This document shows positions 20,319 through 43,720 of a stretch of 64,000 nucleotides of DNA, in pieces. The position numbers and the translations under genes were made by a program. The DNA comes from Rosellinia necatrix (lineage: Eukaryota > Ascomycota > Sordariomycetes > Xylariales > Xylariaceae), in contig JAGYVD010000006.1 in assembly GCA_021209875.1 (NCBI GenBank), forward strand, positions 1,922,001-1,986,000, read 5' to 3'. The notes beneath the pieces are model-generated. The model worked only from the letters and a program-made list of their open reading frames with translations. It did no database searches and was not told the DNA's origin. Positions within the stretch are counted from its first letter, which is position 1. The number at the start of each line of letters is the position of its first letter.

Positions 20319-22668
20319 TCAATTCACATCAATTTTGACCTTCGCTTTCTGTCTCGTTCCATTGGCAATCCAGGAGATATCGAGCGCGGAACCTGAAACT
20401 GTAACCTTGAGTTTGTATGGCTCAAGGCGATATGAAGTACGGCTCCCAACAACCAGTTGATAGTTCTCTATGGGTTGTGAACTTAGTCGCTGATATTCGA
20501 AAATCTTTCGAACATTATCATCAAGTCTTGAGGGAGGACTCATATTATCGCATGCATAAATATGCACGGTGGTGGTACCCAGACCCTGGGCATCGCTATC
20601 CCAGCTTTGGTTATAGTTATAGGTTTTAGTCTGCATGGCCGAAATATTTTCTCCCTAAAGCGATATACTTAGCACATTACATGGTAATAGATTTTAAGCT
20701 CTTACCCGTTTGACAATCCATTCAACTTGGTTGTCAGCAAACCATTCTTCGCAGTGTTTATGCCAAAACCTATCCTCTATTTTGTGAACTCCATGGATAA
20801 ATTTTGTAGAGAAACACCACCCATAGTTAGATCGTGCAATTCGAGATTGCACTAGATTTGATGTATTGCGAGAAGACGAGCTCAATTCGGCTGCACCAGA
20901 GAGTGCTGCACCACGACAAACCGCCGTCCACCTTGGATCCGAGCATAGTTAGCAACAATTTTTCGGACCCGCAGACACATTGCTACTCACGGTTTATCCC
21001 CACGCGCTTGAAGAACACTGATTCGAGGATCTAGTTCTTGTCTCAGGCGCATCAAGATATAAGGAGACCGTCCAAACCCACCCACAAGAATCACAAGCTA
21101 GTCAGCCACCTTTAGTCAGCATACCGAAAGGAACATATGATAGTGAGCAAGAGAAAATAGCCGACGTACCTTAGGGAGTCGCGAGCTTTTTGCCTGAATA
21201 GCGCCAATCTGTCCATTCACCAACTCCATAATTCGTGAAACGATCTTATAAAACACTGGCTGAATTTGATTTCTTTAGGTACAGTTTTTGTTAGCTTTTA
21301 TGCAAGATATCGCAAAACTGGTACGTCTTACGTAGAGAATCGCAACGGAGCTTTCCGCGCACGGTTAGGAAGTTCAACCGTATAGTAATCAGGGTCTCCG
21401 TCAAAAGCTTGCTTGATGCCGTGTTCCCACTAGATATTAGGAAGAGTCAGTTACCAGTCTACCGTGCCATTTCCCATTGTTTGTCACTAAGGGGAAAATA
21501 AAGTATTATACTGCGTCGTATCTTGCCATATTAACGATGCATACCTCATTATTCATCACTTTTCTGATATCAGATCCATTCATCTTGCTCCAAGCTGCCA
21601 TTCCGACTGTCGTCTTCAATAATTTCTCAAATTCATTGTTTAGGAAAGTGCCACCGCACAAATCGCCTTTGCCAAAGAATTAGCATGCTATTGGAATACA
21701 CAGGGATGTTAAACATTACCCTCGCCCTCAACGCATTCAGACATAGAGAGCGGCTCCAGCTTGTCAACTCTGTAACTAATAATATCGCTGACAAGGCCTC
21801 GGAATTAGCACTTAGGATGTTCAAGGGTTGGTATATGACCTACACTGTTCCTCCACCCGCATCGACGACAACGATCGTATCGCTCACCAATAGGTCACCG
21901 CGATTATTAAGCTCAGGCATAGTGGCAATGGCCGCAGCCTCAGGCTCAGAGATAAAGGTAAGAGTTGTCTTCCCGGCAACGCGGGACTTCAATATGCCTG
22001 CAAGGTCTGCGGCTTCGCGCATGCGCTCTCTGGCATAATTGGTCCAGATAGCCGGAACGGTGAGGACAACAAGGAACGGCATCCCATCGATAATATTTTG
22101 TCCCTTCGCATCGTAAATCTGCCCCAGAGCATGGTTCCATAGTACTTTTAGATACTCACCTACCAGCTGGACGGCGGTCACGCCGAGCTTTTGGAGAGAT
22201 TCATTAGCATCGGTAATGTGAGAGCAGTTCTGAAGATGCTTTTGTAAATCTTTGTGGTTGAGTAGAAGCAGTTTGAACCACTCAATAGCCTTGACACTAG
22301 CAGGGACCTTGAAACCCCAGGAGAGCTCTCCATTCTCGTTATAGTACATCTTAGATGGGACTTTCTGACTATCCGAGTTCTTTTTACGGTTGTCCGCAGA
22401 TGTTTGCCAGAGCGAGATAACCTCTGGTTGGCCGGGCGGGGAATTAGTCTTGTGAATGAACCAAGAAACTCCCGAAAATCTAGGTTAATAGTGGTCAGCT
22501 GCGTCTCTATGTCTTTATAGGTAGGCTTAGGGATATAACGCGATAAGTGACGATGAAGCGACCACACTCGAGTCGTCTCCTTGTGATATCAAATAGCCAT
22601 AAGTTAGATGCTTACGTCGTTCCAAAGTCGATTCCTACCACCAACGTGGTATTCACTGGTGGAGGCAT
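20319..22668 (-). CDS. Diverged Hsp70-like ATPase (fungal HSPA12-type family)
   Basis: Nine exons (22668-22616, 22479-21844, 21787-21720, 21666-21545, 21429-21332, 21272-21170, 21097-20991, 20931-20706, 20654-20319) join in phase to 582 residues. Actin/Hsp70-fold nucleotide motifs are clear: phosphate 1 VVGIDFGTTFSGVSW near the N-terminus, FISEPEAAA, phosphate 2 VVVDAGGGTVDIIS, the EGEGDLCGGTFLN motif, and the adenosine motif LVILVGGFGRSPY. No canonical substrate-binding domain or EEVD tail follows; the last ~170 residues are a family-specific tail. Such proteins form large paralogous families in filamentous ascomycetes and are of unknown role. Exon 1 stops inside the phosphate-1 motif and is completed only if intron 1 ends at 22480, which fixes that boundary. 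Every frame is open, so the gene appears intact. It faces away from the orphan gene at 24039. Codon usage is AT-richer than in the flanking secreted-enzyme genes. Confidence 0.88.
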
Positions 22669-25397: not shown

Positions 25398-26213
25398 GAA
25401 CAATTCATCTAACACCAGGTTGTGATACATGGATTACAGTTGTTGATAATTGCCGTTCCCCGCCGGGGGGGGTTGCGTGAGGCTGGAAATTCCAAGAGGA
25501 AACAAAGGGCGTGATTTACGCTGGGGCAGGAAAAGGGGGTGGGAAATCGTCGACACATCTTCGTTAGTGTCAGGTCCAATAATGACCCTGCTAGCTACCA
25601 CTCGACACCTGGGGTGGTTTTAGTACTAGAAATGGGTGTATATAAGGACGTTCGGGACCCCCTTGGGTCTTGAAGGGTTAAGGAATCAATTGTTAACCCT
25701 ATTGAGCCCTAAATACTACCACCACAACCCCCCTACGGCCTAGAACATGCCTATCTATTCACTTCGTGATCCCTACGACTGACAGTTAGTTTGAGTTTTG
25801 TATTCTCTCTGTTCTGCTTTTTTTTTTGGTGTTGTGACGCAGTTACCGCGTCTCTAGGTAGAAATGTATGGGGCCCCCTATAACATTGATATTGGTCTGT
25901 CACCAGATACCTATTAGTCAATATTCCGGCTAAGAACATATCCCTTATATCTGACAAGCATCGGTCAATTGGGTTCATAGAAGCCTTGATTATTGATTCA
26001 CTATAAGGCCATCAAGACATGCGGTTTTGATCAGGGTCGATTGATGAAAAAAAAAATAGGTAGATATAAGAAACATTCAAAGATCATTGACAAAAGTAAT
26101 TAAATTAATCATTGAATTGAAATGTGATACTCTGCGATAGTACTCGTACGAGCTGGCTTACGATAATGAACGCGACTTGTCCATTTAGTGGGAGCCGGCC
26201 AGATTACTCCGTT
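25398..26213. other. Convergent spacer
   Basis: 0.8 kb between the 3' ends of the orphan gene and the A-T gene. It contains a G-rich run near 25462 and a T run near 25820; nothing coding is seen. Confidence 0.55.
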
Positions 26214-28489
26214 TCACTTGGTGACTAGATTTACCAGCTTAGAGATCGAGCGATTCTTGTAGATGGCTTCCTGTCGAATAAGGTCGACCGGCTGTTGCGA
26301 TCTAACGATAAATGCATTGATTGTGGTAAGAAGAGAAGAAACCTGTAGACTGTCCAGGCCGAGCTTGAACAGATCTGCATCATCGGTTAATTCGTCGCCC
26401 AGGGGGGTTTCCGCCAAAGTATCGCGAATCAACTGTCGCAACTGCTGACGTGTTGCGCCATTGGTTTGTGCTGGATGGGTGTCGTTGAAGGCTGGGGTGC
26501 TGCTTGCAACTATCTTTTGCTGCCTAGAATCTGTACTTAGGGCGTCGGCAGGCTGTACGCTTAGATTCGATTCATGCAGCTTATGGGCGGTTTGTTCCAG
26601 GGCAGACCCCAGAATCTGGAGTGTCTCAGCAAGTTTGCGCTCGACAATTGCTTCGATGGCGCGCAGCAGACCGTCAGTCAGAGGCACTTCAGCGCGGTCG
26701 TCGCCGTGAATGACACCATTGATCTTGTTCGGCACAATTGGTGGCACAGACGCCGAGGCCTTGGGTGCTTGATCAAACCGCGCGAGTCGTTGGTAGAGAG
26801 ACTTCCATTCCTGCTCATAGAGTTTGAACACGGCGTGCCGTTGTACTGTGTCTTTGCTGGCTCGGGGGAGAGGCTTCGAAGGATCCGTGAGCATGACAAA
26901 ACCTCTCATTATGCGACCGTGAGCAGGGCAGCCTTGATTGGCTTGCACGATAAGCGGCCAGACTTCATCGAGAAAGACTTTCTCTTCCATTGCGCTATTG
27001 GGATATTCGCGAGGCTCGAGGAGGAGTGATGCTTGGAAGTACCCTTGACCTCCGATGACGGCCGATTTCACAAGAGGATGCGCCTGGATGGTGCTTTCCA
27101 TGGTCGAGGGGTTCAGCTTTTCGGCTGTAGTGAACGAGATGATGTCGTCTGCTCTACCCCTGAAGCGCCACAAACCTTGTTTCAAAGGATGGGGCTCAAA
27201 AAGATCGCCCATCACGTGTTCATTCTTGTCAGGAAACGTGGAGAACACGCCTTGGTGCATCTCAAATCTCTCCTGCTTTACGATTGTCAAGTTTCCAAGA
27301 TCGTCGCGATCATCCTTGAACGTGTGACCAAGGGTGGGGCTCAGAGAGATATACTCCCAGTCCTGGGAGCTGTCCAGAAGCTCGTGGGGAAGAAGTGAGG
27401 TTTCGCAGGATCCCATTAATGTTAAGAGTCGGATTCGCTGGCAAAGAACATCTCCAATGTCTTCCGGCAGCATGCCGCCTCCATACACTACGAACTGTAA
27501 ACCTTGAAGCATTCTGATACAGTAAGTGTCGTTGTTATAGCAGTCAACGACGAGGGACGGCGCCATGAGAGCACCGTAGGAGTTTGAGTACAGGAATATT
27601 TGGCTCGCTAGTTCAGCTGTGAGAGGTATTGGAGGCGGCAACACGCAGGTAACGCCGGCAAATAGGGCAATCCCTACAGTCCAGTTGAGACTGGCAGCGT
27701 GGAACAATGGCAGAGCAAGGAAGACGCGTTTCCCTCGGACGTAGCTGAGGAAGGTTGGCTTGTACCCAAGGGATGGAGCCAGTAGCTGCGCGTCCATACC
27801 ACCATATGAGCCATAGGTAATGTGTACCGGCTTCGGGATTCCGGTGGATCCAGAAGTATGGAGAATACAGAAAGGCTCATTTCTGACTTGCTCATAAGGC
27901 TTCAAGAAGGGGACCACATCGACTGGCTCTTCATCCAAAAAGTACTCGAGGCTGGGTATTCTCACGCTTTCCATCGGCCATCCCGCGAGGATATGACGAG
28001 CAACAGGCATTGGCTCATCAGGGAGAAGCATAATAGAACATCCGGTGCGCTCAACTAGCGAGAGGTGAGCCTCGAGACTATTTCGGTGTGAAGTGAGGAA
28101 AGCCTCCATCGATTCATGTTAACAGTGAACTATCGAGGAAGCGAATAGCGGGAGAGAGCGAAACGTACAATGTGCCCAACTTTCGGGGCAGCCAGAACAA
28201 GAATCAAGTATCGTATGTCAAGCGGTCCGAGATAACAAAAGACACGAGGTCCCTCAGGTCCGAGTGATTTCTGGAGCCAGTGGGCGCATCGATTTATTGC
28301 ATTCGCGGCTTCCTTGTAGTTGATGTCACGAAAGCCATCCTCCATACGATCTGTCTTCGCGATGGACCAGAGCACTCTGCCCGGAGCATCCGCTGCGATC
28401 TCATCAACGAGAACGTGAGGTAGTCGCTGTCCACACCGGGGCGGCGAGTCTCGCCATTGAGGATCAACAGCAATCTCATGAACGGGCAT
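26214..28489 (-). CDS. NRPS-like enzyme with adenylation and thiolation domains only
   Basis: Two exons (28489-28169 and 28103-26214; intron with gtacgt donor and gttaac branch-like site) give 736 residues. The ANL adenylation domain runs from about residue 10 to 530: A3 P-loop LHTSGSTGIPKP (188-199), GGGMLPEDIGD, A7-A8 FRGRADDIISFTTAEKLNP, and an A10-like segment PRASKDTVQRHAVFKLY. In this NRPS-like group A10 usually reads TGKGTVxRK, so the context of the catalytic Lys is altered. After a ~100-residue linker comes a carrier domain with LGLDSLQ, Ser692 being the phosphopantetheine site. The frame then ends 44 residues later, with no reductase or thioesterase domain, unlike the usual A-T-R and A-T-TE enzymes. 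The expected role is activating a carboxylic (perhaps aromatic) acid and loading it on the carrier; release must be done in trans. It shares a divergent promoter with the hydrolase. Confidence 0.9.
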
Positions 28490-28582
28490 GTTGAGTAGAA
28501 TGGTATAGTGAGGTAGAAAATCTGACTTGAATATTTAGTGGACGAGAGCATGGAGTTCAATTTCTGAGTTCAATTTCTGAGC

Positions 28583-28589
28583 TTATATA
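28583..28589 (-). promoter_or_regulatory. Probable TATA box of the A-T gene
   Basis: TATATAA on the minus strand, about 95 bp upstream of the ATG at 28489. Confidence 0.5.
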
Positions 28590-29422
28590 CAGGGTATAGA
28601 TTATACGGACTAGACTCTTGGGGTTAAGTCTCACCCGGCCACGTATAAGGATTATATTGTTTCTCCTGTCGACGGCCAATGATGAGTACTTCACCAAGTA
28701 CCTACCCTTTAGTTCAACATAACACGCAACAACCTCATTCTGGCTCAATGATTCTAAGTAGTTCCATTGCCTCGTCCGTCAAGGAAACAGGCTGCTAATG
28801 ATGAGTGAACTCACTTCTATAGCAGCGTGTTGGCTGATAGGCGATGCCTTCGGCCTTGAGCCACTTCAGCCTGGCCATTGGGTACATGATTTGACCATGA
28901 AGTTGCGAGTCAAGACCTGGTGTTCCCATCAATATCTGGAAAGTATCTAACCAAACTACCACTGGGACTTCGCAGTCGATTCAAGTGTATCTCAATTCCT
29001 GCCATATGTACATAAGTACTGTGCACGGGTACACTCCAACTGGTCCTTTGCTGCGCCGCGAGTGGCCACCACGCTCGACAAAGTTCCAGCAAATAAGTAC
29101 CAATTATTTGTAAAGTTGCTGTTTTTGATGACCCCCAGAAGGCATCAGCCACCAATTATCTTTGCCTTCTTACGCATTGACATATACTCTGACGAGATGC
29201 TGTCCGGCTTTCCGCTCGAGTTGAATATTGCTATGTCGGGCGGAAGCTTGGGCGAGGTAGCCGTACTTACCTTGAAGAACTGGTCACCTGCACCAGATAA
29301 CCTGCTCGCCTGGCATGTGTGGTTGCAATCGTTAGCGACTAGCCTGTTGGCGGCGGCTGATAAGATACCTCGGTACAAACAAGGCGTTCGGTAGAGGGCT
29401 AGACAGCGCACGGATGACACGG

Positions 29423-29482
29423 GAGCCTGCATGAGTAAAGGTAGCCTGCATGAGGAGCCTGCATGAGGAGCCTGCATGAGGA
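29423..29482. repeat. Tandem repeat of a gcctgcatgag core
   Basis: Four copies of agcctgcatgag, two of them in perfect 13-bp register, lie in the A-T/hydrolase intergenic region. Confidence 0.85.
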
Positions 29483-29995
29483 GTCTACCCTGGCCACCCG
29501 TTGGAATATAGTATGTTAATGGGGTTTGAACAAGACGATGCATCTAAATACAACGTAAAATCCGGTGGGCGGAGCGCCACTGCTGCCCGTGCCCTAGGAT
29601 GTAGCACTTCTCACTGTGACACTGAAGAGCTGTGATGGTGTCTACTTGATAACAGGAAACCTAATGATACATGTAGGTCAGAGTGCTCATTGATGGGTAT
29701 CATTCGCATATGGACAATGGTAACCCTAGACGGACCGACCTGTGAAATGTCTGATACCTGCGCCCCCATGCTCCTCCAACAGTACCCATCAACCAGGTGG
29801 TCTGGCGGGAACGAAGGGGTGCTTGTCTGATTCGCGGACGGTAGCTCCAATTGTGATGCATCACTTGGCCCCTCTCGACCTGTATCCAAATCGCATCTTC
29901 TTCACTCGCAAGACTCACATATTTGGCTACAGATATCTCCTTCCATTGCCTGCCGTGTCTCAGTTGCCAAGTTTTCTCCCCTCATCAATTCAAAG

Positions 29996-31013
29996 ATGCC
30001 CTTCGCTTCCTTGCCCTCCCAGCCAGAAGGCCCCGTGGCTTACGAGCTCTTCCAAGGTGACCCAGAAAGTAGCCTCCTCATCGTTTGCCTCAATGGACTT
30101 GGACTCCCCCAAACAGTCTGGAAGCCATCTATCGAGCTGTTTCAGAAGTCAAACGTCTCGCCCAAGCCATGGATTTTGACCTACGACCGCTACGGTCAAG
30201 GCGCGTCACCAAAAGATCCCCGCGCAGACACGGCTGGCAAAGACCCTGGCTATGACCACACGGTAGATGACACGGTAGACGACCTTCATGAGCTGATCGC
30301 TACTGTGACCCCTGATCGTCGCGACCGTCTTGTTCTCGTGAATAACAGCATTGGTGCTCACATCGCCCGCCGATATGCAGCCAGGTAGGTTCATATGGGC
30401 ACACATTCAGTGCCACTAGCTGAACCGTCTTTCCATGATAGATTCCCGAAAATTGTTGAGGGCATTCTGTTCCTCGATTCCAACCCGGGAAATACCGACT
30501 ACGCTGTTATCTGGCCCAACCCGAAAGAGCCTTCCTTCGATCTTGCGTCTATGGCACCTCCTGGTACATCTCTCGAGATCTATGAGGCAGCCTATATGAA
30601 GATGACAACAATATTCTCACCGGATGCGAAGAACAAAGAAGGGTTTGACCGCCGGGGAATTAAGGCTCTCCTTCCCGACCCATCGAAGCCGAAGTTGAAA
30701 GGCTCTAAAACATCCGACAAAGGCCCATGGGTCACCGTGGTTGGTCACGATGTTGACCAGTTCTCCAAGGAGGAGTGGGAGATGATGAAAGTCCCCATTG
30801 GCATGGCGGCAATGTACACACAGCCGTAAGCCACATCGATGCCCCCCCTAAGTTTGCAATCGACTACTAACTTGATGAAGGATGTGGATCAAGTACAACG
30901 AGGGGCTCGCCCAATTGACTGACCCCGATAGATCCAAGGGCCCCGTGATCGCGCCCGAGTGTGGTCATTTTGTCCAAAAGGATAACCCCCCCCCTTCGTG
31001 GCCGAGCAGCTAG
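29996..31013 (+). CDS. Alpha/beta hydrolase with a probable 3' frameshift
   Basis: Exons 29996-30384, 30442-30825 and 30881-31013 give 301 residues. The fold is recognisable from the LNGLGLPQTVW oxyanion region, the TYDRYGQG strand and turn, and the nucleophile elbow VNNSIGAHIA with Ser118 (NxSxG, Asn in place of the first Gly of GxSxG). His lies in PECGHFVQKD near the C-terminus. Just after it a run of nine C's (30986-30994) puts the frame on an early TAG at 31011-31013. One extra C would continue into FVAEQLVDLVEKVESSK and a TGA at 31046-31048, an ending with the amphipathic helix expected of the family. So the copy carries either a true one-base deletion or a homopolymer sequencing error; both catalytic residues lie upstream of it. 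It could hydrolyse the thioester made by the neighbouring A-T enzyme, which lacks a release domain, but that is inference. Confidence 0.8.
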
Positions 31014-31048
31014 TTGATCTTGTCGAGAAGGTTGAGAGCTCGAAATGA

Positions 31049-32614
31049 CGCCGTATGAAACGATGGATAGCTGGAAAGTTACGTTCGTGCTTGGTGTTTC
31101 AATGATGAGTTACCCTTTGTAGTACCTGGGAAGGAAGTGTGATTGGAGTAGATTAGTCTCCTTGTTCGACAAACTAGGCTTGAAATTGACTAGAATACAT
31201 TGAACTCACAAACTGATCCGAGTGTATCTTCTGTCAACATCATACCGGTATGTGTCCAACCACCCATGCGTGGCGCCACGTGTGCAAAAGGAGTGCTACA
31301 GTCAGTTACTTCAGCCAACCATTCTTCTGTTACGATCCTACGTACTACGAGTGGTACATCTATTTCTCTTCTTTACTCTATAATAACTAATGTCACCTGA
31401 TAGCTCACTGGCTTACTAGATTATTACGATCTAAGATAACTTACTTATTTCTTATGTCTATATAACCTTTAGATATCTTCTGTATCTAGCCATTCTTTTA
31501 GTTTAATTTTTTAGTTATTAACTTACCTACATTAATACACTTATTAACTAACTACTGTTTAGACTTTTATCTTTATGCAGTAGTAGGAGTCCTTAAAAAC
31601 CTCCCTAACAAACACTTGTCACTGTCCTACTATTACCTGCAAATAAAGACCTCTTTACGTACTAACTCTACCTCTCAGGTGATGTAGAGCAGGTTCGTTA
31701 CATCTTCACAACTCCCTAGTTATTGTGCGCTTCGTTAGAAGCAAGATATCTCACAAGGCGTAGGTAATCTTAGGCTGCGGAGACCGCCATTTAGAGAAGG
31801 CTGGCTCAGAAACGTAGTGGATGGGTAAGTGTAGGTATTCACATGCATGTAATCCATGTCTATATGTGCCCTTTGAGATCCCTGGTGGGAAACTCAGTCC
31901 TGCCGTTTGCCTACGCAGCCAACATGCATACAATATTGATGCATGTTGTTGAAGATACAGGTGGTCACAAGCAAGTCCTTTTGGGAGGCACCCGCTATGG
32001 CGTCAGATTTTCGGCAAAGTCCGACATGAAGCCGTCGTCCAATCGGGCATTTCATTGCCCATCACTAAAATAGAAGCACGCCTCCACTGAAGCATAGCCT
32101 TGTGTCGTCTACTGGTGTATACATACACCGGGGATGTTGGATAGCTGCAGCTGGGGATTCTAAGCGACTGATACATCTGTTATATAACCATCACACCTCA
32201 CCTCTTTTGGCACGCCACTGTTTCGGTGCAGTGAAACCCTACGTCGTTGTAATTCCGCCCCCTTTTTGCAACTGCAACTCTAACCTGTTTTGGGCTTCCA
32301 TCCATGGCCGTGGTCGAAAATCGAAGTCATGTTGTTCGCCTAATAGTACCCAAATATATTAATAGTAACAAGTGGTGATGTTCTTTTCTCACGTGTGAGT
32401 AAATGCATTGTATTTTGGTGTAGTAGAAGAGGGTGTTGGAAAGCGACTCAACATCACTACCTTGCCCGACCTGCCCAGATGATCAAACAATAGCATAAAT
32501 ATGACAATTCCGCTATTCTTAACCTGTCAATTGCCTACAGAAGCTGATTTTGCTCACCCTGCACTAGTATTTGCCCGATTCTCCCTTTCAGCGTGATCTA
32601 CAAACTAGGCCACC
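31049..32614. other. Spacer with an AT-rich island
   Basis: 1.5 kb with no gene. From about 31380 to 31700 the base composition becomes very AT-rich with many TA steps, unlike its flanks, which may be a decayed repeat. The rest is unremarkable; a cataaat element at 32494-32500 could be the TATA-like site of the next gene. Confidence 0.5.
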
Positions 32615-33865
32615 ATGGCATCAAAAGGTCTCCCCCCAGCATCCGGGGATATCAATATTGGCTGGAAACTTGAAGTGGGCACAACAGTCACGTTCTTGGC
32701 TGCCACCATCGTGGTGGCGCTTCGTTATTTCACACGTTGGAAGTACTCACGAAGGGGTTGGGATGACTACCTCATAATCTTTGCCTTGGTAAGTCTTCGG
32801 ATTTCTGGGAAGGCCTCCCCTTTGTCATCGCTCACTGTTTTCCAACAGGCTCTGGCCTTTGTAGCCACAGTCGTCGATTTTATTGCCGTGAATAAGGGTC
32901 TGGGTCGACACTTGTACTACTTGTCATATCAGCAAGCGGTGGACCAACAATTTTACAGCCTTCTTGCACAGGTATTCTGTGTGCATTCCCTCAGCTTCGC
33001 CAAGATATCCATCACAGTCTCGTATATGAGGGTGTTGCGAGGATCAGGAAGTCGATGCCACGAGATTGTATTGTGGATTGTTGGTCTCTCGGTCTTGGTT
33101 GTGAATACGATCGTTATCATCACATTTTATGCTGCCTGCAATCCAACTGAAAAGTCATGGAACCCCATTGTTAAGGGAACCTGTTGGTCCATTCACAAGA
33201 AGCTTGCTTTCTTTATCCTTCAAGGAGGCAAGTCTTGACCTTTCATCGTGCTTGCGTCGTGCTTTACTAATCCATATTAGTCTATTCGGCCCTCACAGAT
33301 TTCTTCTTGGCGCTGTATCCTTTCTTCTTTCTCTCAAAGCTCCAGCTGAAGTGGAAGGCCAAGGCTTTGGTGTTTGTCCTGATGGGACTCGGTGCAGTGT
33401 GAGTACCCTTGTTATGCTTCGCTTGCAATGTTTTCAGTCTTCTAATGGTGCGATAGAACTGGCATATTTGCCGTCATTAGAACAGTAGAGACAGGCACTC
33501 AGCTTCGCCTTCCACCTAATACGCCACCGGATGTTTCTTTTAGTACTGTCCTGGGACTGACATGGTCAGGCTTAGAGCGAAACATTGCTATATTGATTGG
33601 AAGTATCCCTGCCCTGAACCCCGTTGTCGCGCCCATTGGCAAGTTCTTAAGATCTGTTGGATCGGGATCGCGGCTTAGATCTGCAAAGTCACAGTCTCTT
33701 CAGCTCTCTGACGTTCCGCGACACTCGAAGCATACGAACAGCTCAGAGAAGCGCAGCAAATCATCAAATGGGAGCCAGAAGAGCAGCGATCGTGTTGGTT
33801 ACACTAGTGATGAGTGTATTCTACCTTTTGAGGTACAGAGAAGAATCGCTCAAGGCGAGGTATGA
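32615..33865 (+). CDS. Fungal rhodopsin-like seven-helix membrane protein
   Basis: Exons 32615-32788, 32849-33227, 33281-33398 and 33457-33865 give 359 residues. Seven hydrophobic segments occupy roughly residues 15-265, followed by a polar Ser/Lys-rich cytosolic tail. The motif WDDYLIIFAL after the second basic loop, together with NKGLGRHL and ATWNP-like EKSWNP elements, marks the fungal rhodopsin-domain family (integral membrane proteins akin to PTH11-type receptors). Members are often found next to secondary-metabolite genes, but their ligands are mostly unknown. Intron 2 has a GC donor (gcaagt at 33228), required to stay in frame. The last exon may instead splice at 33857 (gtatga) to a short terminal exon after 33907, which would change only the last few residues. 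Start chosen at the ATG with context CACCATGG. Confidence 0.85.
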
Positions 33866-34407
33866 ATAGTTCAAGTACTGAACTCCTACAGCTAGACACT
33901 AATTAGAGACTTGAATGAAGGAGGGCACATCAGTGGTGTGCAGCCGGAGCGGGATTACGAGAAAGGAAGTCTGACTCCTGATTGCCTTGCTACGACGTAG
34001 ATTTCACACTTGTTACAAACTGCGAATCTGTCATAGTGGTGATTATTTATAGCTTTTATTCATGGCAGCCCGCCTTAATTGATATTCATTGTGGACGAAA
34101 GCAATTCGCATATCTAGACGAACGAATACGTGACAGATGAGGATACCCCTTGATATTTCCCACGGACCTTGATACCCCTATGTTCCCTAATCTCATCATG
34201 GAGCCTACGGCGCCTTCGTAATTGTATAGAATTGTCACTCACTAGGTGCGCCCTTGAAAGTGGCAAAAATTCTACGCCGCAGGGGTGGCATTGTAAGTAT
34301 TAATATGTTCATTAGGCTTCCTCAGGGAGAATGTTATAGGTACTTCAACGAAACTACCGAACCACAACTCTCAACTTGAATGGCTATTCAAACACATCCA
34401 TATTACT
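33866..34407. other. Convergent spacer
   Basis: 0.5 kb between the membrane-protein and PLP-enzyme 3' ends; nothing coding is seen. Confidence 0.55.
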
Positions 34408-35869
34408 TCACTTTCTTTCCCCAGCCATGTATGCACCGTACGCCTTTTGTAGGCGCTCCATCGCCACGTCAAGCCTTTTTGGGGCTACAGAGAAGGAAAC
34501 TCGCATCCAGCCGTTGAAGTCAGAAGGCATATGATAGTCCGCAGCAGAGAATAACAGGACACCTTTGGACTGATAAAATGCCACGGCTTCCCTCTCATCC
34601 TCCCGTGTCTGGCAATACGGCGCTAGACGTGCAAGCACAAATGTCGTGGCTTGGCAAGGCAGGTAAACAATTGAATTCGCATCAAAAAAGTTTTTGAGGC
34701 GCTCGTATGACTTCGCTAGCCGTGATGAATTCAGCTGTACGATAGAGTGAAGCTTAGGGGAAGTCAGTAAAGCCCGCCCAAGTACTATCGAGATGTTTGA
34801 TACGCCTGTATGCGCAACAAGAGCGATAGAGTCTCTTAAGCCCTTATTTCGTGTGACAACACAACCCTATAAGATAGTGGTGAGTATTGTTATAGTACAC
34901 ACTTGTTCTGAGGTATACCTACTAGGCGTGCTCCAGTAGCACCAAGATCTTTGCTTATGCTCCAGATGACATGGATTCTCTCCGGGTCGCAACCATAAGC
35001 AGCAGGATCGATGGCCAGGGCGGAAGTGAAGTTCCTAGAGCCCCGGAGATCCTCGCATCCCAGTTCGCTTAGTCCAAATACCTCATCCGAAATCAGGTGA
35101 AGGTCACGGCGCTGGCAGAACTGCATCAGTTCGACCAGGCACTCTTTGCTGTAACATCGACCCAATGGGTTGTGGGGGTTGGTCACCACCACCATTTTCA
35201 CGGGAACAGATGACTCCTGAAGCCCACGTTCAAGTATCGTTACCATTGTCGGACCAAACACATCGTCAAGACTGTTCACGCCGACTGGGATGGTGACAAT
35301 TCCCGTATGCATGGTGAGGAAGACCTCATATGCCCCTATACGACAGTCAGAGAAGCCCAATTGTATTAAAGGCTTCTAAAGCGGTAGCCCTGATAGTAGA
35401 GGTTACTCGTGCCTGTGTGGTAAGGGCATGGCACTAGTACACCCTCTCCTGGGTCGCAGATACCCCACGCTACTCCGTCAAGCGATCCCGCAGCCCCCGT
35501 TGTCAAGACAATGTTTTTATTTTCAATTGCCTTGAAGGGAGAGAAGTACGAGTTGAAAAGCGAAGACAGCGCAGTGGGGAGTTTTGCTTCACCCCAGAAC
35601 CCGTGAGGCCAATTAAGCTCCTGAATTCGATGGATCGTCGTGTTAGTAAGAACTCGCGTTAAGGTCAGTGCTGGAAACCTTACCTTCTCTGTGAGATCAC
35701 TTGCAGCTGCCTCACGAAAGATCTCAAGAACCTCTGGGCGTATGGTGTAGTTCTCAGCGAACGACAGATCAATCCAGTCATTGTCGTCAATTACCTCAGT
35801 CAAAGAGATAGGAAGGTGCCCGACATAGGTCTGCACGTTCCGTGCGCCTCGTTGTGATAGGGCTGCCAT
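34408..35869 (-). CDS. ACC-synthase-like PLP-dependent aminotransferase (class I/II)
   Basis: Exons 35869-35684, 35620-35407, 35335-34923 and 34866-34408 give about 423 residues, the normal size for a fold-type I 1-aminocyclopropane-1-carboxylate synthase-like protein. Visible family elements are IDLSFAEN, the LTTGAAGSLDG cofactor-binding strand, VVTNPHNPLGR, ISDEVF with the PLP-contacting Asp, and WSISKD whose Lys262 should form the Schiff base. C-terminal MRVSFS supplies the carboxylate-binding Arg. Fungal members rarely make ACC itself; many act on amino acids by transamination or beta/gamma-elimination in metabolite clusters. The start is ATG 35869 with context GAAATGG. Intron 2 is the least certain boundary: the gtaacc donor at 35406 keeps phase, but a GC donor at 35411 aligns slightly better with the family. 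The neighbouring UbiA gene is divergent across 1.4 kb. Confidence 0.87.
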
Positions 35870-35972
35870 TTCGAGTATAGGATTGAAAAGACAAAAGTGT
35901 AGCAGTTGACGGGGCAATCAAAAGAGTCTCGTGTGGGCGGTAAATACTCAACCGAGTCTTAATCTACGGGTC

Positions 35973-35978
35973 ATTATA
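35973..35978 (-). promoter_or_regulatory. Probable TATA box of the PLP-enzyme gene
   Basis: TATAAT on the minus strand about 105 bp upstream of ATG 35869. Confidence 0.45.
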
Positions 35979-37195
35979 GCCCCTTTTACTACCTAGCTTG
36001 AATTGATCCGGGAGTGTTAAGAATTGAGACAAGGTCACGTGGAGCTTTCGCGAGAGGGCAGATCTCGAGACACCATCTGGCGTCCTATTCCGTCGTCATT
36101 GCTACGCCGATTGTTGTTGCAGTTTTGCAGACATGGAACAATCCCTGAACCGAGCGTGGTAATGCATATCTTCGCTTGTCATCTTGGCCGCTAGAAAGCC
36201 AACGCTGCTCGAGCACAGAACAAGATGCTGCTGCCGGCACCCTCCAGACCATGTGTGGATAGCATATCCGGTTTCATCGCTGTCTAGCGAGAATGGATGG
36301 CTTGTTTAGCTGTTACCCTCGGTGATGAACTCGTATTGACCACTTCGCCTAGAGACATGGCGCCCCAGCTTCGGTGGGAAAGCATGATGTTAGGTGAACT
36401 TGGTTACTATGCGTCAAACCAAGGTTACATTACGCGCCAATATCGCAACATCGCCCCAAAACTATTGCAACATTATTTGTGTTACCGGAGATGGCGAGTT
36501 TGCCCATGGTGTGTCATGTCGAGGCTGACTATTCCCCACATCAAGGCAACGTCGGATAAGCGACCTGCAAGTCCTCCATACGACCTGTTGGTACATCATT
36601 CGGCCCTTTGTCCCAAGGTCGGCGGGCCCTGCATAATGCAATGCTTCCCAATTTTTTGATTGGGCTTGGACAAGGCCTGGGATTCCGACCGTCTTCTCGC
36701 TACCGCCCGACTTTTATCGCGATAGGATGGCGAACGATGAAGACAGCTCAGGCTTGCTACGACGAGTAGATGACAGAGGTGGATTTTTGTAGCTGCGAGG
36801 GTCAGTGGAGACGACGTTTCTAAGTTCAGGAGAAAAGGTTGCACTTTGTTAGTGTCAGTGAGAAATATGTACTCTAGGTAACTATCAAAACCATCACCTC
36901 GCTAGTGGGGACGGTGAGAATTCGCAACAAGTAGCTTGCTTGCAAAAATTTATTCTTACTGATCTTCTAACACAGAGCCAGTCGCTACTTCATAGTCACT
37001 CGAACGCAGTTTCAACCAAGAAGAGAGCTCCAATTCTGCACATATGACCTAACAATTGTCGGGGCAACAGCTCGAGAGTAATTAGTCGTTGCTAGGCTGT
37101 CCACCATCTACTTAAGCAGCGCAATAACCCGTCGGTTTTTTGTATCTCGTTACGTCCGTCTCAGGCACGCCGGATTCAATACCATGTAAAACGTT

Positions 37196-37203
37196 TATAA
37201 AAA
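37196..37203 (+). promoter_or_regulatory. Probable TATA box of the UbiA gene
   Basis: TATAAAAA ends 81 bp before the ATG at 37285. Confidence 0.55.
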
Positions 37204-37284
37204 GGAGTCTTTCGCCTTATTCTATTAAAATTTGTGATTCGCATTGCTCTATCACTTCACCCCACTTCATCCTCGACCTAAGCC

Positions 37285-38370
37285 ATGGCCTCGAAGACCT
37301 CAATCGCCCCAGCTGCGGCTCAATGGCATTCATTTCTTCCGCCGCTGGCATTGCCATATTTACAGCTGATGCGCCTCGACCGTCCCAATGGCTACTGGTA
37401 CTTCTGGTACCCTCACGTATTCGGAACTCTATGGGCAGCTATACAACAAGGCTCCCCACCCTTGAAGCTGATATACATTAATGCTATTCTCTCCGTGGGG
37501 GTTCTTGTCATGCGTGGGGCAACATGCACCTGGAACGACATTGTCGATGTCGATTTTGACCGAAAAGTGTCCCGATGCCGTAACCGGCCGCTTGCTCGCG
37601 GGGCAGTCTCACGCACGAGGGCAATCCTCTTTACTGGGGTGCAAACATTGGCATCCACGGCAGCCTTGTTGGCGCTCCCACCGCTATGCATGGTATACGC
37701 ACTGCCCGCGATTGTCGGGTGGCTCTGCTACCCACTGGCGAAAAGAGTCACGTACTATCCTCAAGTAGTTCTGGGGTTCCCAATGGCCTGGGGCATATAT
37801 ATGGGAGCTGCATCAATGGGGGCTGACCCACTCCATCTGGAACCCCTCCTTAACACTCTGGGCAATCTGGCCCATGCCGGATCCATGGAGAGCCTGCAGC
37901 TCACTCCAATTCTCACCGCACTCCAAGAGAGCCGCGTCGACTGGCCTATCGCGTTCTTCTATATCGCCAACGTGATATGGACCCTCCTTTACGAGCTGAT
38001 CTACTCGCATCAGGACGCTGCCGAGGACACTGCGGCGGGCGTCAAGAACCTAGTCCTACTATACACCAATCTCGAAGCAAAAACCCCTGAGCAGCGCTTC
38101 GGCACCATGCCGCTCCTGGTCCGGCTAGCTGCAGCGCAAGTATTTTTCATAGCTGCGGCGGGGACTTCAAGCGGCCTTGGTCTTGCCTACATACTGCTCG
38201 ATATCGCGGGGACATCGGCGGCATTGGCGATCATGCTGAGTCGCGTGAGGCTGAGCGATCCCGACTCTTGTGCGTGGTGGTTTGGGGTGGGTAACGCGAA
38301 ATACGCCGGCCCCGCAATGACAGTAGGGCTGATAGTAGAGTATACTGTCAGGGCCTTTCTACAGAGGTGA
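37285..38370 (+). CDS. UbiA-family aromatic prenyltransferase (integral membrane)
   Basis: An intronless gene of 361 residues with about eight or nine hydrophobic helices. The family's two Asp-rich Mg-diphosphate motifs are intact: NDIVDVDFD at residues 84-92 and YSHQDAAED at 240-248, followed by GVKN. The N-terminal block LMRLDRPNGYWYFWYPHVFGTLWAA corresponds to the conserved 'RxDKPxG' start of 4-hydroxybenzoate polyprenyltransferases. These enzymes attach a prenyl chain to an aromatic ring within a membrane. COQ2 of ubiquinone synthesis is the housekeeping member, but fungal clusters for meroterpenoids and prenylated aromatics use paralogs of this length. About 40 extra residues lie between helices at 178-219. 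No mitochondrial targeting presequence is obvious, and the gene neighbours an A-T enzyme, so a specialised-metabolism role is more likely than ubiquinone synthesis (inference). Start context AGCCATGG. Confidence 0.93.
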   Translation: MASKTSIAPAAAQWHSFLPPLALPYLQLMRLDRPNGYWYFWYPHVFGTLWAAIQQGSPPLKLIYINAILSVGVLVMRGATCTWNDIVDVDFDRKVSRCRNRPLARGAVSRTRAILFTGVQTLASTAALLALPPLCMVYALPAIVGWLCYPLAKRVTYYPQVVLGFPMAWGIYMGAASMGADPLHLEPLLNTLGNLAHAGSMESLQLTPILTALQESRVDWPIAFFYIANVIWTLLYELIYSHQDAAEDTAAGVKNLVLLYTNLEAKTPEQRFGTMPLLVRLAAAQVFFIAAAGTSSGLGLAYILLDIAGTSAALAIMLSRVRLSDPDSCAWWFGVGNAKYAGPAMTVGLIVEYTVRAFLQR

Positions 38371-41019: not shown

Positions 41020-42602
41020 CTACCTAATAAAAATGTCACAGAGTCTCGTGAAAAGCTGGCTATAATCTCCTGCGTTTGCTTTAAATGCCAATTGCGTTAG
41101 ATCGGCGCGTACGCGGAACGACTGATAACTCGATTCGAACACGTGGGTGGTATAAGACAAAACATAGTTGCGTAAGGCATCAGAAAGTACACCTGAGAGA
41201 GATCATTATTACTAAAAATCTTAGCAGATAGAAAGGGGGGGCCGGAGTGTAGTAGGAACGTACTATCTAGATTAGTCCCTGTACCTACTCGAAGGCTGTA
41301 GAGCCGTGCCTCCTCGCGGAAACCGCTGACCAAGAGAACACGGTGCCAAAGGTCGTTAAGCGTTTTATACGACATGGGGAAGATCTTTTTTTTTTTGAGC
41401 ATATCCGCCTTCCAAGGAAGAGGTACAAGATCTACATGCTCTAGATTAGGCTGGTCGAATATTTGATCAACAGTCGTGAAGCCGGCGTTAAAGCTGTTGG
41501 TTTGAACCCCTCGCGTAAGGATCAGGCAACCGAGGCAAAACGTGCAGTTTGGTATAAGAGTAATGGAAAATCCAATGCGAGCGCGGCTAGTTTTCGCCGT
41601 TTCTTTGATTTTGTTCCTCTCGATGCTTATCGACACGACGATCTGGGTCCTGGCCGGGTCGGTCGGATCACGCACCACTGCCACTTGAAATTGGGAAAAT
41701 GTCAGGCCTAACAGCAAACCACCAGTGGCAGCTAATAGAAGGATAGCGTGAAAAGATGCTCTAGTCTCGGGTTTGCAAGGTATATCGTTCGCTCTTGACC
41801 ACAGAGTTTGGAGGATCACGCCTACATCAGTGCCTGTCATGGCAATCTTCTGATAGGCCGGATTAGTATCCAGGCCGATTTCAACGGTGAGTTCGGTGAA
41901 TATCCACTGCGTAACGAAAATTACGTTAGCGATGATACACAGAGAACAAAAGCCACTTAGTTCGCTCTGTTATCAAACTAAAATCGCATTAGACATACCT
42001 TGACTATGAGATAAGCAGGGCCTTCTCGACTGCCCTCTTCTTTGCTGATCCACCTCAGCCTCCACACGTCCGCTTGGGCGGGATCCTTTCTTCTCTGGCC
42101 TTTCATCACCCCATGGTCTACAGAGGCCACAAGCCTTCGCCAGACCTCGGTCAGGCTGAAAGCCGAGTTTAAGGTCCGTTCATAAACATACTCTCGGGCG
42201 TCGAGTACGGGCCGTTTCTGAACCGATAGGTCGACGTAGGTACGGAGGAATGATCTGAAAGGCGCCTGGGCTTCGGAGTTTTGAGGGCATAAAACGAAGT
42301 CGAGCCATGGTTTTTGAACATCGACTTCAATATCGGCACAATGTCTATAGCAAAGTTTGTTAGCATCTCTATCAAGATAACCAGTTGTAACAAAAAGGAC
42401 GGGGCGAAACCTACTGAGTCCAACGCCCCCAGAGCCGATCTCGTTCTATTAGAGTCTCGTCGGCCACAAAAGGCTTATCTTCAATAGGCCGCTCAACATA
42501 CTCTTGGAAGTGCTTCTGGGCTATCGCTCTGCTTTCCTCACGAGAGGGCAAGGCCGTGAAATGCTGCTTGGAGGGCACGTGCTCAATATAGCCGGTCGTC
42601 AT
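41020..42602 (-). CDS. DUF3435/FluG-domain protein, recombinase-like but catalytically degenerate
   Basis: Exons 42602-42415, 42344-41999, 41906-41264 and 41192-41020 join in phase to 449 residues. The sequence follows the DUF3435 (FluG-domain) family, which includes the tyrosine recombinases ('captains') of Starship elements. Seen in order: RDRLWGRWTQHCADIEVDVQ, the WRLRWISKEEGSREGPAY block, LLLAATGG, ERNKIKETAKTSRARIGF, the basic-box RLYSLRVGTG (Arg384) and the C-terminal YTTHVFESSYQS with Tyr415. Two catalytic positions look lost: box I, usually TGxRPG, reads ATGGLLLGLT without Arg, and the box His (GHTT in relatives) is Tyr406. The frame is otherwise open, so it may be expressed but is unlikely to recombine DNA. 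The N-terminus is uncertain: an open frame extends upstream of ATG 42602. It is transcribed leftward, toward the metabolite genes. Confidence 0.82.
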
Positions 42603-43720
42603 CTTTAGCGACGCCCTCGGCGGCACGAGCGAAGGATCAGCTGGTGGGCCTAGGGTGTTCCACGAAGGGGGTGAAGGAGGGGGGGGGTGGCCTAAGTAGA
42701 AGCGGCATCGTTCGGCGCAGGAGGAACAGCATGACCCGGCGGCTCTACGGTTCCGTTTCCTTCGATACGATGCGCCGGTGGAGTCAACCTGCCGATGGCA
42801 AAACGGAGGCCCGGCGGCTACGAGGTAGACCGCACCGCCACGACCCGCATGATGAGTCAGCTCAGGCTCTCGAACTGAGTTCCTAATATTGCTTCATCTA
42901 GCTACTTTCGACTGGCCACTTCCACAGGTTGCCAGTTTAGTTGCCATTCACGGTAAATTTGATATCTGTTAACAGAACAACAGAAATATCCTGAATATCT
43001 ACATCCTAAACAATAGTTTTATTATATACTCTTGAATCGCACTCATCTCTCTACAATGCCAGTCCTGAGAGAGAATGGCCGGCAGTTACGAGCACCATTA
43101 CTACCCCCCCTTCTCATTATCATCCGGCCATCTCAGCTTTTACAAATTTGATTTTATAACAAATCTAAACACGAACAGTAAAACTTATCTTCCTAGTCGG
43201 ACCCTCGCGAAATACGTCCAGCCAAACGAAAAAGCACAGCAAAAGCAACTCAGTCATCCGGATGTAAACCCCCAGAAGCCACTGGACATCGGTGATTCCG
43301 ATGTAGCGAAGACCCGCGGCTACGATATCCACCCGAATATAAAAACCCCACGAAATTCGGAGTAGTGTCCAGACCCTGCTAAACTATGCCAAAGCCGTGT
43401 AGTCTGGCGGCGGCAGCGAAGCGGACGAATGGGATGATTCCGGGGACGACACCAATGATCCGCATCATTACCGTTGCGGCAACGATGAGTAATGATGCCA
43501 ATGAGGAAAGTCGCGATCACGGCGGTAATAGCGACGACCCTTCCGAAATTATATATCTTGACAATTCCCATCTCGATTCATGTGATTTACGGAGGGAGAA
43601 TATATCACGCACGCCAAGAGCGACTTCAGAGCAAGTGTATCTATTGACGATATTATTATGTATTATCATTTATCTGGCGACGCATAGATCTCCGCCCCAC
43701 ATCATCCCCCTCCCTTCGCT
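42603..43720. other. Spacer between two minus-strand genes
   Basis: 1.1 kb. The first ~300 bp upstream of the DUF3435 start are GC-rich with a C run near 42680 and may hold its missing 5' coding part. Nothing else is supportable. Confidence 0.45.

What the first reader, a model, noticed from the sequence alone, without database searches (positions are those of the whole stretch)
26214..38370. Candidate small metabolite locus: A-T enzyme, hydrolase, rhodopsin-like protein, ACC-synthase-like enzyme and UbiA prenyltransferase
Five adjacent genes in 12 kb combine acid activation (A-T), hydrolysis or release, PLP chemistry on an amino acid and aromatic prenylation, with a membrane receptor-like protein. 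Two gaps are divergent promoters. No PKS, full NRPS or terpene synthase is present, so standard cluster callers could miss it. A possible logic: an aromatic or amino-derived acid is activated on the carrier, released by the hydrolase in trans and prenylated by the UbiA enzyme. Known prenylated-aromatic fungal pathways pair UbiA enzymes with NRPS-like carboxylic acid reductases; this locus would be a variant with the reductase missing and an ACC-synthase-like enzyme added. Joint function is inference.
Basis: partly seen in the sequence, partly recalled or inferred. Interest (0 to 1): 0.75.

Follow-up and report, generated by a model that had tools for sequence, protein, structure and literature searches.

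The report
Conserved fungal prenyl-aryl acid gene cluster
Five neighbouring fungal genes form a small, apparently uncharacterised metabolite cluster, conserved in distant fungi, that probably makes a prenylated aromatic acid derivative in an unusual way: the usual reducing part is missing and an amino-acid-type enzyme sits in the cluster instead.

Summary
The five genes are real and at the stated coordinates. They are a conserved cluster, not chance neighbours: homologues of the A-T enzyme, UbiA and the PLP enzyme share a contig in seven relatives across Xylariales and Helotiales, with near-consecutive locus tags where tags are shown. The Botrytis cinerea UbiA homologue is Bcin17g00020; published RNA-seq calls Bcin17g00010, -20, -40 and -50 (NRPS-like) most likely co-regulated on a minichromosome. 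The nearest PKS match on the contig is about 0.8 Mb away. The genome holds three other UbiA/NRPS-like pairs whose NRPS-like genes reach into the reductase domain (one by Pfam, two by tblastn); the window locus lacks it and carries the PLP enzyme, and the reductase-less A-T form is conserved. It is not a carboxylic acid reductase and not a genuine ACC synthase (the key Gln and two Tyr are replaced). The 21 closest PLP homologues share an unusual His68/His130/Phe220 set. Most likely a 4-hydroxybenzoate-like acid is prenylated, loaded on the A-T carrier and resolved in trans instead of being reduced; that chemistry is inferred. The hydrolase tail is frame-disturbed and hydrolase orthologues were not traced. 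New variant of a known kind.

The parts
26214..28489 (-). A-T (adenylation-thiolation) NRPS-like enzyme, 736 aa; exons 28489-28169 and 28103-26214, 65-nt intron; no reductase or thioesterase domain
   Evidence: the 14 best homologues are 733-756 aa
28490..29995 (.). 1.5-kb divergent promoter gap between the A-T and hydrolase genes
   Evidence: no motif shared by the promoters beyond shuffled expectation
29996..31013 (+). alpha/beta hydrolase (Abhydrolase_6), 301 aa as read; exons 29996-30384, 30442-30825, 30881-31013; C-terminal frame disturbed at a C run
   Evidence: one in-genome paralogue, 44% identical
32615..33865 (+). Fung_rhodopsin (PF20684) integral membrane protein, 359 aa; exons 32615-32788, 32849-33227, 33281-33398, 33457-33865 (second intron GC-AG)
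   Evidence: 46% identical over 160 columns to the rhodopsin half of a fused rhodopsin-PLP protein of Aspergillus saccharolyticus
34408..35869 (-). PLP enzyme, aminotransferase class I/II, ACC-synthase-like fold ('GliI-like' in other records), 423 aa; exons 35869-35684, 35620-35407, 35335-34923, 34866-34408
35870..37284 (.). 1.4-kb divergent promoter gap between the PLP and UbiA genes
37285..38370 (+). UbiA prenyltransferase, 361 aa, single exon; both Asp-rich motifs kept

Best explanation
This is a conserved biosynthetic cluster of filamentous ascomycetes for a prenylated aryl-acid derivative. UbiA C-prenylates a 4-hydroxybenzoate-like acid from primary metabolism. The A-T enzyme adenylates the (prenylated) aryl acid and holds it as a carrier thioester. 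Because the reductase domain of the related CAR enzymes is absent, the thioester is resolved in trans: by the PLP enzyme, which supplies an amino-acid-derived partner, and/or by the alpha/beta hydrolase acting as acyl-transferring or releasing enzyme. The rhodopsin-like protein is a membrane accessory. Shown: gene content, domain architecture, conserved co-localisation of A-T, UbiA and PLP, absence of a detected nearby PKS. Reported by others: likely co-regulation of the Botrytis genes. Inferred: substrate, order of steps and the trans release.
For: Co-localisation: of 18 listed UbiA homologues with at least 59% identity on contigs over 25 kb, 7 have both A-T and PLP homologues on a contig of the same length, 2 A-T only, 2 PLP only, 7 neither. 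Locus tags agree: Botrytis aclada EAE96_007259 PLP, 007260 UbiA, 007263 A-T; Chlorociboria B7494_g7399 A-T, g7402 UbiA, g7403 PLP; Hypoxylon CI-4A 22829 UbiA, 22832 A-T; Sclerotinia nivalis 005847 A-T, 005850 UbiA. Likely co-regulation of Bcin17g00010/20/40/50 (PMC9861337, section 3.4 read); Bcin17g00020 is the UbiA homologue. In this genome 4 of 13 UbiA loci, the window's included, lie within 10 kb of an A-T relative (expected 0.10; 0 of 20000 draws). Phosphopantetheine Ser in 115 of 120 A-T homologues. Aryl-acid activation: the His of the FHAA motif stands where amino-acid-activating enzymes have an Asp (recalled) in 116 of 120, and the four best fold matches of homologue P0121 are complexes of the salicylate/benzoate-activating enzyme CahJ. 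UbiA: best NCBIfam model is 4-hydroxybenzoate octaprenyltransferase, 192 bits, below its 275 cut-off.
Against: Hydrolase orthologues in relatives were not searched; only the two-gene gap between A-T and UbiA tags suits hydrolase plus rhodopsin. Seven of 18 UbiA homologues show no partner in the lists. A-T/PLP pairs on Aspergillus contigs (A. tamarii 314743, A. pseudonomiae 1064673) have no UbiA among the listed hits, so UbiA is not obligatory for the A-T/PLP pair (lists cut at 120 rows). In Xylaria nigripes the PLP model on the UbiA contig (P0273) looks eroded or mis-modelled. No shared promoter motif. The in-genome hydrolase tail is disturbed. No substrate was tested. The uniform null ignores clustering of secondary-metabolism genes. 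A-domain fold matches below the first four also include non-aryl enzymes.
Confidence: 0.45

Rival explanations
1. A-T, PLP and rhodopsin-like genes are an older core module acting on a substrate that is not prenylated; UbiA is a late recruit that decorates the finished product in Xylariales and Helotiales.
For: A-T and PLP homologues share contigs in Aspergillus tamarii and A. pseudonomiae with no listed UbiA there; a fused rhodopsin-PLP model in A. saccharolyticus.
Against: The 21 closest PLP homologues, which include eight of the nine that share a contig length with a UbiA hit (the ninth, P0273, is eroded), have their own signature (His68 21 of 21, His130 21 of 21, Phe220 20 of 20 aligned), while the 11 next ones (P0262-P0272) have Trp at 130 in 11 of 11, so PLP differs where UbiA is present. 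This may be one evolutionary event.
Confidence: 0.25
2. The PLP enzyme is a carbon-sulfur lyase and the pathway introduces or removes sulfur.
For: N217, D245 and K285 of Arabidopsis ACS7, tied to its C-beta-S lyase activity (PMC8580319, passages read), correspond to N189, D217, K262 and are kept in 20 of 21, 20 of 20 aligned and 21 of 21 of the closest rows; homologues are named GliI-like.
Against: Those residues are common to nearly all rows of the wider family; none of the 15 flanking ORF pieces scanned with Pfam was a glutathione transferase or other sulfur gene, though not every flanking ORF was scanned; His130 is rare outside this clade.
Confidence: 0.12
3. A split terphenyl/furanone-type pathway: the PLP enzyme makes an arylpyruvate, A-T plus a trans hydrolase dimerise it, UbiA prenylates (logic like terrequinone).
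For: Gene functions parallel A-T-TE, aminotransferase and prenyltransferase clusters of Hypoxylaceae (PMC8403587, passages read).
Against: A-T groups with A-T-R enzymes: the only longer architecture among the 120 listed hits is A-T-R (9 rows), and no listed row carries a Pfam thioesterase domain; the hydrolase has no Pfam Thioesterase match. The search admitted proteins up to 1.75 times the query length only.
Confidence: 0.1
4. The PLP enzyme is a true ACC synthase giving ACC or ethylene.
For: Best sequence and fold matches are plant ACC synthases.
Against: Gln98 of ACS7, needed for ACC-synthase activity, is His in 21 of 21 closest rows; the Tyr of the QDYHG motif is Phe and the second Tyr of the PYY motif is His.
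Confidence: 0.03
5. The locus is decaying in this strain and makes nothing.
For: Hydrolase tail disturbed; flanks hold a repeat and a degenerate DUF3435 gene; a related cluster has an eroded or mis-modelled PLP gene (P0273).
Against: The other four genes have open, spliceable frames; the catalytic residues checked in A-T, PLP and UbiA are conserved; the disturbance lies in a homopolymer where assembly errors are common (recalled).
Confidence: 0.1

Closest known systems
Vibralactone-type pathway: UbiA (VibP1/VibP2) plus carboxylic acid reductase (BvCAR) on 4-hydroxybenzoate (PMC10257657, passages read)
   Same: UbiA prenyltransferase and an NRPS-like acid-activating enzyme, no PKS; 4-hydroxybenzoate a plausible acceptor
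   Different: No reductase domain here; a PLP enzyme, a hydrolase and a rhodopsin-like protein instead of aldehyde reductase and FAD monooxygenase
Asperpentyn (aty) cluster: phenylalanine ammonia-lyase, UbiA AtyB, P450 AtyI and others (PMC12356543, passages read)
   Same: UbiA transfer of a C5 prenyl group to p-hydroxybenzoate without a PKS
   Different: aty uses P450, FAD monooxygenase, cupin and SDR; no NRPS-like A-T or PLP enzyme is named in the passages read
Botrytis cinerea minichromosome 17 genes Bcin17g00010-00050 (PMC9861337, section 3.4 read)
   Same: Bcin17g00020 is the UbiA homologue; tag order PLP, UbiA, x, x, A-T in Botrytis aclada matches the five positions (inferred); likely co-regulated NRPS-like gene
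   Different: Product unknown; located on an accessory minichromosome; Bcin17g00030 is not among the co-regulated genes named
In-genome paralogous locus C1:640-650 kb: A-T-R, rhodopsin-like, P450, UbiA
   Same: NRPS-like enzyme, rhodopsin-family protein and UbiA within 10 kb, no PKS match near
   Different: Has the reductase domain and a P450; no match to the window's PLP, hydrolase or rhodopsin-like protein at E 1e-4

Membership tests
UbiA aromatic prenyltransferases | Two Asp-rich motifs (NDxxDxxxD and DxxxD) in a UbiA fold | tested here: met
   N84, D85, D88, D92 and D244, D248 invariant in 19 of 19 aligned rows; PF01040 132 bits
UbiA aromatic prenyltransferases | Prenyl transfer to 4-hydroxybenzoate or a similar acid | not testable with these tools
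   Needs an assay; best NCBIfam model is the 4-hydroxybenzoate enzyme but below its cut-off
Fungal carboxylic acid reductases (A-T-R) | Adenylation and carrier domains with intact Ser | tested here: met
Fungal carboxylic acid reductases (A-T-R) | C-terminal NAD-binding reductase domain (PF07993) | tested here: not met
   Absent in the window protein and in 111 of 120 listed homologues, of which 33 exceed 700 aa and none 800 aa; many of the rest are short or partial models
A-T-TE enzymes (terphenyl/furanone synthases) | C-terminal thioesterase domain | tested here: not met
   Protein ends after the carrier domain
ACC synthase | Fold and PLP-binding Lys | tested here: met
   Top 12 PDB fold matches are ACC synthases, TM (query) 0.77-0.82, for homologue P0242; K262 in 21 of 21
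ACC synthase | Gln98 of the second N-terminal motif, required for ACC formation | tested here: not met
   His68 in 21 of 21 closest rows (alignment, requirement read)
ACC synthase | Tyr residues of the QDYHG and PYY motifs | tested here: not met
   Phe70 and His130 in 21 of 21
GliI-type C-S lyase of epidithiodiketopiperazine clusters | C-S lyase activity | not tested
   Name only, from other records; N, D and K of the lyase mechanism kept
Biosynthetic gene cluster | Co-localisation conserved in distant taxa | tested here: met
   7 of 18 with all three genes, 11 of 18 with at least one partner; hydrolase not tested, rhodopsin-like only through one fused model
Biosynthetic gene cluster | Co-expression | tested here: inconclusive
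   Not measured in this fungus; reported as most likely co-regulated for the Botrytis genes
Starship mobile element cargo | Intact DUF3435 captain gene at one end | tested here: not met
   Only a 290-aa piece with 34 bits at 41.1-42.0 kb; two neighbouring frames gave no Pfam match; element ends not sought

The most novel reading that the evidence does not exclude
The PLP enzyme is a carrier-protein-dependent condensing enzyme that replaces the reductase domain in trans: an amino-acid carbanion on PLP attacks the prenyl-aryl thioester held by A-T, giving an aryl aminoketone. The switch from Trp/Tyr to His at the residue expected to stack on PLP (His130) is seen in the UbiA-linked clade, and His there is typical of alpha-oxoamine synthases (recalled). 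It would be an aminoketone-forming release in trans from a fungal A-T didomain.
Probability: 0.13. Interest if true: 0.75.

Novelty: new variant of a known kind. Interest (0 to 1): 0.5.

Why it matters
It joins three loose ends. First, an A-T didomain family without a release domain that is conserved across Xylariales and Helotiales, with Aspergillus and lichen relatives. Second, a PLP subfamily with a distinctive active-site set. Third, a likely co-regulated gene group on an accessory Botrytis cinerea minichromosome whose genes were described in print as having little or no similarity to genes of other organisms, but for which homologous clusters exist in Xylariales. The prediction, a prenylated aryl acid handed to an amino-acid-derived partner, can be tested with a handful of genes. 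The same genome offers a reductase-containing sister locus as a natural comparison.

Tried and rejected
Horizontal transfer between Xylariales and Helotiales: not shown. In the careful A-T tree the four Helotiales rows do not form a clade, but holding them together is not rejected (p-AU 0.208; 0.232 for Xylariales plus window). UbiA identity between the two orders (69-81% in 16 pairs) is hardly higher than for Coq2 (65-79% in 12 pairs, other species).

Shared promoter motifs among the three upstream regions: none beyond shuffled expectation.

Linkage of the hydrolase paralogue to UbiA: the paralogue (C9:378.9 kb) lies about 15 kb from a UbiA gene, but that UbiA is Coq2 (71% to Daldinia Coq2), so I treat it as chance.

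Starship cargo: a DUF3435 piece lies next to the cluster, but it is a fragment; the adjoining stretch 41990-42892 gives ten further partial matches in the genome. Rejected as an explanation for now.

True ACC synthase and A-T-TE readings: see rivals. Rhodopsin half of the Cudoniella fused protein P0290: not an orthologue (22%).

Literature: 10 searches (one search was on ACC synthase residues, one search returned nothing). In their listings and the passages I opened I saw no product or pathway for this cluster. Searches cover open-licence PMC only, and most listed papers were not opened.
Full report
What is there. The window lies in a 49.1-Mb, 12-contig fungal genome (contig C4, 1.922-1.986 Mb). 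The best named homologues are mostly Xylariales (orders looked up for four species, recalled for the others). Five genes occupy 26214-38370: A-T (-), alpha/beta hydrolase (+), rhodopsin-like protein (+), PLP enzyme (-), UbiA (+). Gene models have short introns with standard ends, one of them GC-AG. Both divergent gaps exist, 1.5 and 1.4 kb. The nearest ketoacyl-synthase match detected on the contig ends about 0.78 Mb from the window. In the flanks, the 15 ORF pieces I scanned included an HSP70-like piece, a 459-aa ORF without a Pfam match, a DUF3435 piece, a HAD-like hydrolase, an S1/P1 nuclease, an FMO-like monooxygenase, an aspartyl protease, a GH18 protein and a MATE transporter.

Is it a cluster? 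Three homology searches give separate lists with contig lengths and locus tags. I took the 18 UbiA hits with at least 59% identity on contigs over 25 kb. Seven have both an A-T and a PLP homologue on a contig of identical length (Annulohypoxylon bovei, Hypoxylon CI-4A, Hypoxylon FL1150, Camillea tinctor, Botrytis cinerea, Botrytis aclada, Chlorociboria). Two have A-T only (Sclerotinia nivalis and one unnamed), two PLP only (the record named Lasiodiplodia mahajangana, and Xylaria nigripes), and seven have neither in the lists. Equal contig length, with equal species name where given, is the basis; the lists are cut at 120 rows. The Xylaria nigripes PLP model (P0273) resembles the cluster type but looks eroded or mis-modelled. 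Tags: Botrytis aclada EAE96_007259 (PLP), 007260 (UbiA), 007263 (A-T); Chlorociboria B7494_g7399 (A-T), g7402 (UbiA), g7403 (PLP); Hypoxylon CI-4A 22829 (UbiA), 22832 (A-T); Sclerotinia nivalis 005847 (A-T), 005850 (UbiA). Two tags thus lie between A-T and UbiA in each of these four. The window has three genes there (hydrolase, rhodopsin-like, PLP); in Botrytis aclada and Chlorociboria PLP lies on the far side of UbiA.

Co-expression. The B. cinerea UbiA homologue is BCIN_17g00020. [quoted passage not shown] The five positions match the B. aclada tag order PLP, UbiA, x, x, A-T. I did not see the sequences of 00010, 00030, 00040 or 00050 under those names, so that match is inferred.

Role of the rhodopsin-like protein. 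It is 46% identical over 160 columns to the N-terminal part of a rhodopsin-PLP fused model of Aspergillus saccharolyticus, against 22% for the Cudoniella fused model. In this genome 7 of 13 UbiA loci, the window's included, have a Fung_rhodopsin match within 10 kb (expected 0.61; 0 of 20000 random draws), and 4 of 13 have an NRPS-like relative of A-T within 10 kb (expected 0.10; 0 of 20000). The null is uniform and ignores secondary-metabolism hot spots. Matches used: 13 UbiA loci over the cut-off, 113 merged rhodopsin loci from 129 of 150 listed rows, 16 NRPS-like loci.

In-genome comparators. Three further UbiA/NRPS-like pairs were fetched. C1:640-650 kb holds an A-T-R enzyme with the reductase domain by Pfam, a rhodopsin-family protein, a P450 and UbiA. 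At C1:6.90-6.91 Mb and C4:2.65-2.66 Mb the NRPS-like genes align with the A-T-R homologue P0222 into its reductase part (tblastn); a P450 and an alpha/beta hydrolase lie near the first and an FAD-binding protein near the second. None of the three regions matched the window's PLP, hydrolase or rhodopsin-like protein at E 1e-4. So the window locus differs by lacking the reductase and having the PLP enzyme.

A-T family. Of 120 listed homologues, 9 carry the reductase domain PF07993 (1025-1103 aa); of the other 111, 33 exceed 700 aa and none 800 aa. The quick tree puts the A-T rows apart from three A-T-R rows with SH-aLRT 100, with a long-branch warning for one A-T-R row. The carrier Ser is present in 115 of 120 and the FHAA His in 116 of 120. 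A model of homologue P0121 (mean pLDDT 77, poor in the A-T linker) matches CahJ with salicylate or benzoate ligands in the first four places, with benzoate-CoA ligase and EntE-EntB among the top 50, besides MenE, acetyl-CoA synthetase, PltF and luciferase. This favours an aryl or alkyl acid over an alpha-amino acid; it is not proof.

PLP enzyme. Sequence and fold point to ACC synthase as nearest solved relative (model of homologue P0242, mean pLDDT 90). The paper on ACS7 (PMC8580319, passages read) makes Gln98 and two N-terminal motifs necessary for ACC synthesis and ties N217, D245 and K285 to catalysis. In the 21 closest homologues, position 68 (Gln98) is His in 21 of 21, position 70 is Phe in 21 of 21, position 130 (second Tyr of PYY) is His in 21 of 21, and position 220 (Tyr of DEIY) is Phe in 20 of 20 aligned; N, D and K are kept in 20 of 21, 20 of 20 aligned and 21 of 21. 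The 11 next homologues (P0262-P0272) have Trp at 130 and Phe at 220 in 11 of 11; one of them has Gln at 68. The eroded P0273 is gapped at 68 and 130. The remaining 87 have Trp 55, Tyr 26, His 1 (P0298, a fragment 65% identical to the window protein), Ala 1 and 4 gaps at 130, and Tyr 74, Phe 10, His 2 and 1 gap at 220; Gln at 68 occurs in 5. So the UbiA-linked clade has its own active site.

UbiA. Both Asp motifs are invariant in 19 of 19 rows. It is a distinct subfamily: about 40% to the in-genome CAR-locus UbiA and 35% to Coq2. Three fungal pathways without a PKS use UbiA on 4-hydroxybenzoate (PMC10257657, PMC12356543, PMC11574748; passages read).

Mechanism. Prenylation of a 4-hydroxybenzoate-like acid, adenylation and thioester formation on A-T, then resolution in trans with the PLP enzyme and/or the hydrolase. 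The Aspergillus A-T/PLP pairs lack a listed UbiA, which keeps the rival alive that UbiA is a late addition.

Hydrolase caution. The frame leaves homology within a C run after the catalytic-His region, while the in-genome paralogue keeps a longer tail. Whether the hydrolase is part of the conserved core was not tested in relatives.

Verdict. A real, conserved, apparently undescribed small biosynthetic locus: a reductase-less variant of the known UbiA/NRPS-like kind, with a PLP enzyme of unusual active site. Novelty claims rest on ten searches of open-licence papers only.

Noticed in passing
window 25568-25787: A 220-bp interspersed repeat just downstream of the A-T gene, with 39 further matches at 89-96% identity listed in the genome, a lower bound.
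   Followed up: partly
window 41100-42893 (-): Degenerate DUF3435 (Starship-captain family, recalled) piece beside the cluster; the adjoining stretch 41990-42892 gives ten further partial matches at 65-88% identity.
   Followed up: partly
whole genome, 13 UbiA loci: Seven of 13 UbiA genes lie within 10 kb of a fungal rhodopsin-like (PF20684) match, far above a uniform expectation of 0.61; the reason is unknown.
   Followed up: partly
G000 C1:640001-650000 (locus L011): Compact classic locus: A-T-R carboxylic acid reductase type enzyme, rhodopsin-family protein, P450 and UbiA, no PKS match near.
   Followed up: partly
homologues P0265, P0268, P0270, P0271 (Aspergillus): The PLP gene models carry an extra C-terminal PF00903 (VOC/glyoxalase-like) domain, suggesting a different partner enzyme in Aspergillus.
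   Followed up: no
homologue P0273 (Xylaria nigripes): Cluster-type PLP model with scrambled or missing stretches on the same-length contig as a UbiA homologue; eroded copy or bad model.
   Followed up: partly
window 21843-22484 (-): HSP70-like ATPase fragment (21 bits, just over the cut-off).
   Followed up: no
record named Lasiodiplodia mahajangana (P0002, P0257): Groups with the window rows and Xylariales in the UbiA and PLP trees although the name is recalled as Botryosphaeriales; possibly a misnamed record.
   Followed up: no
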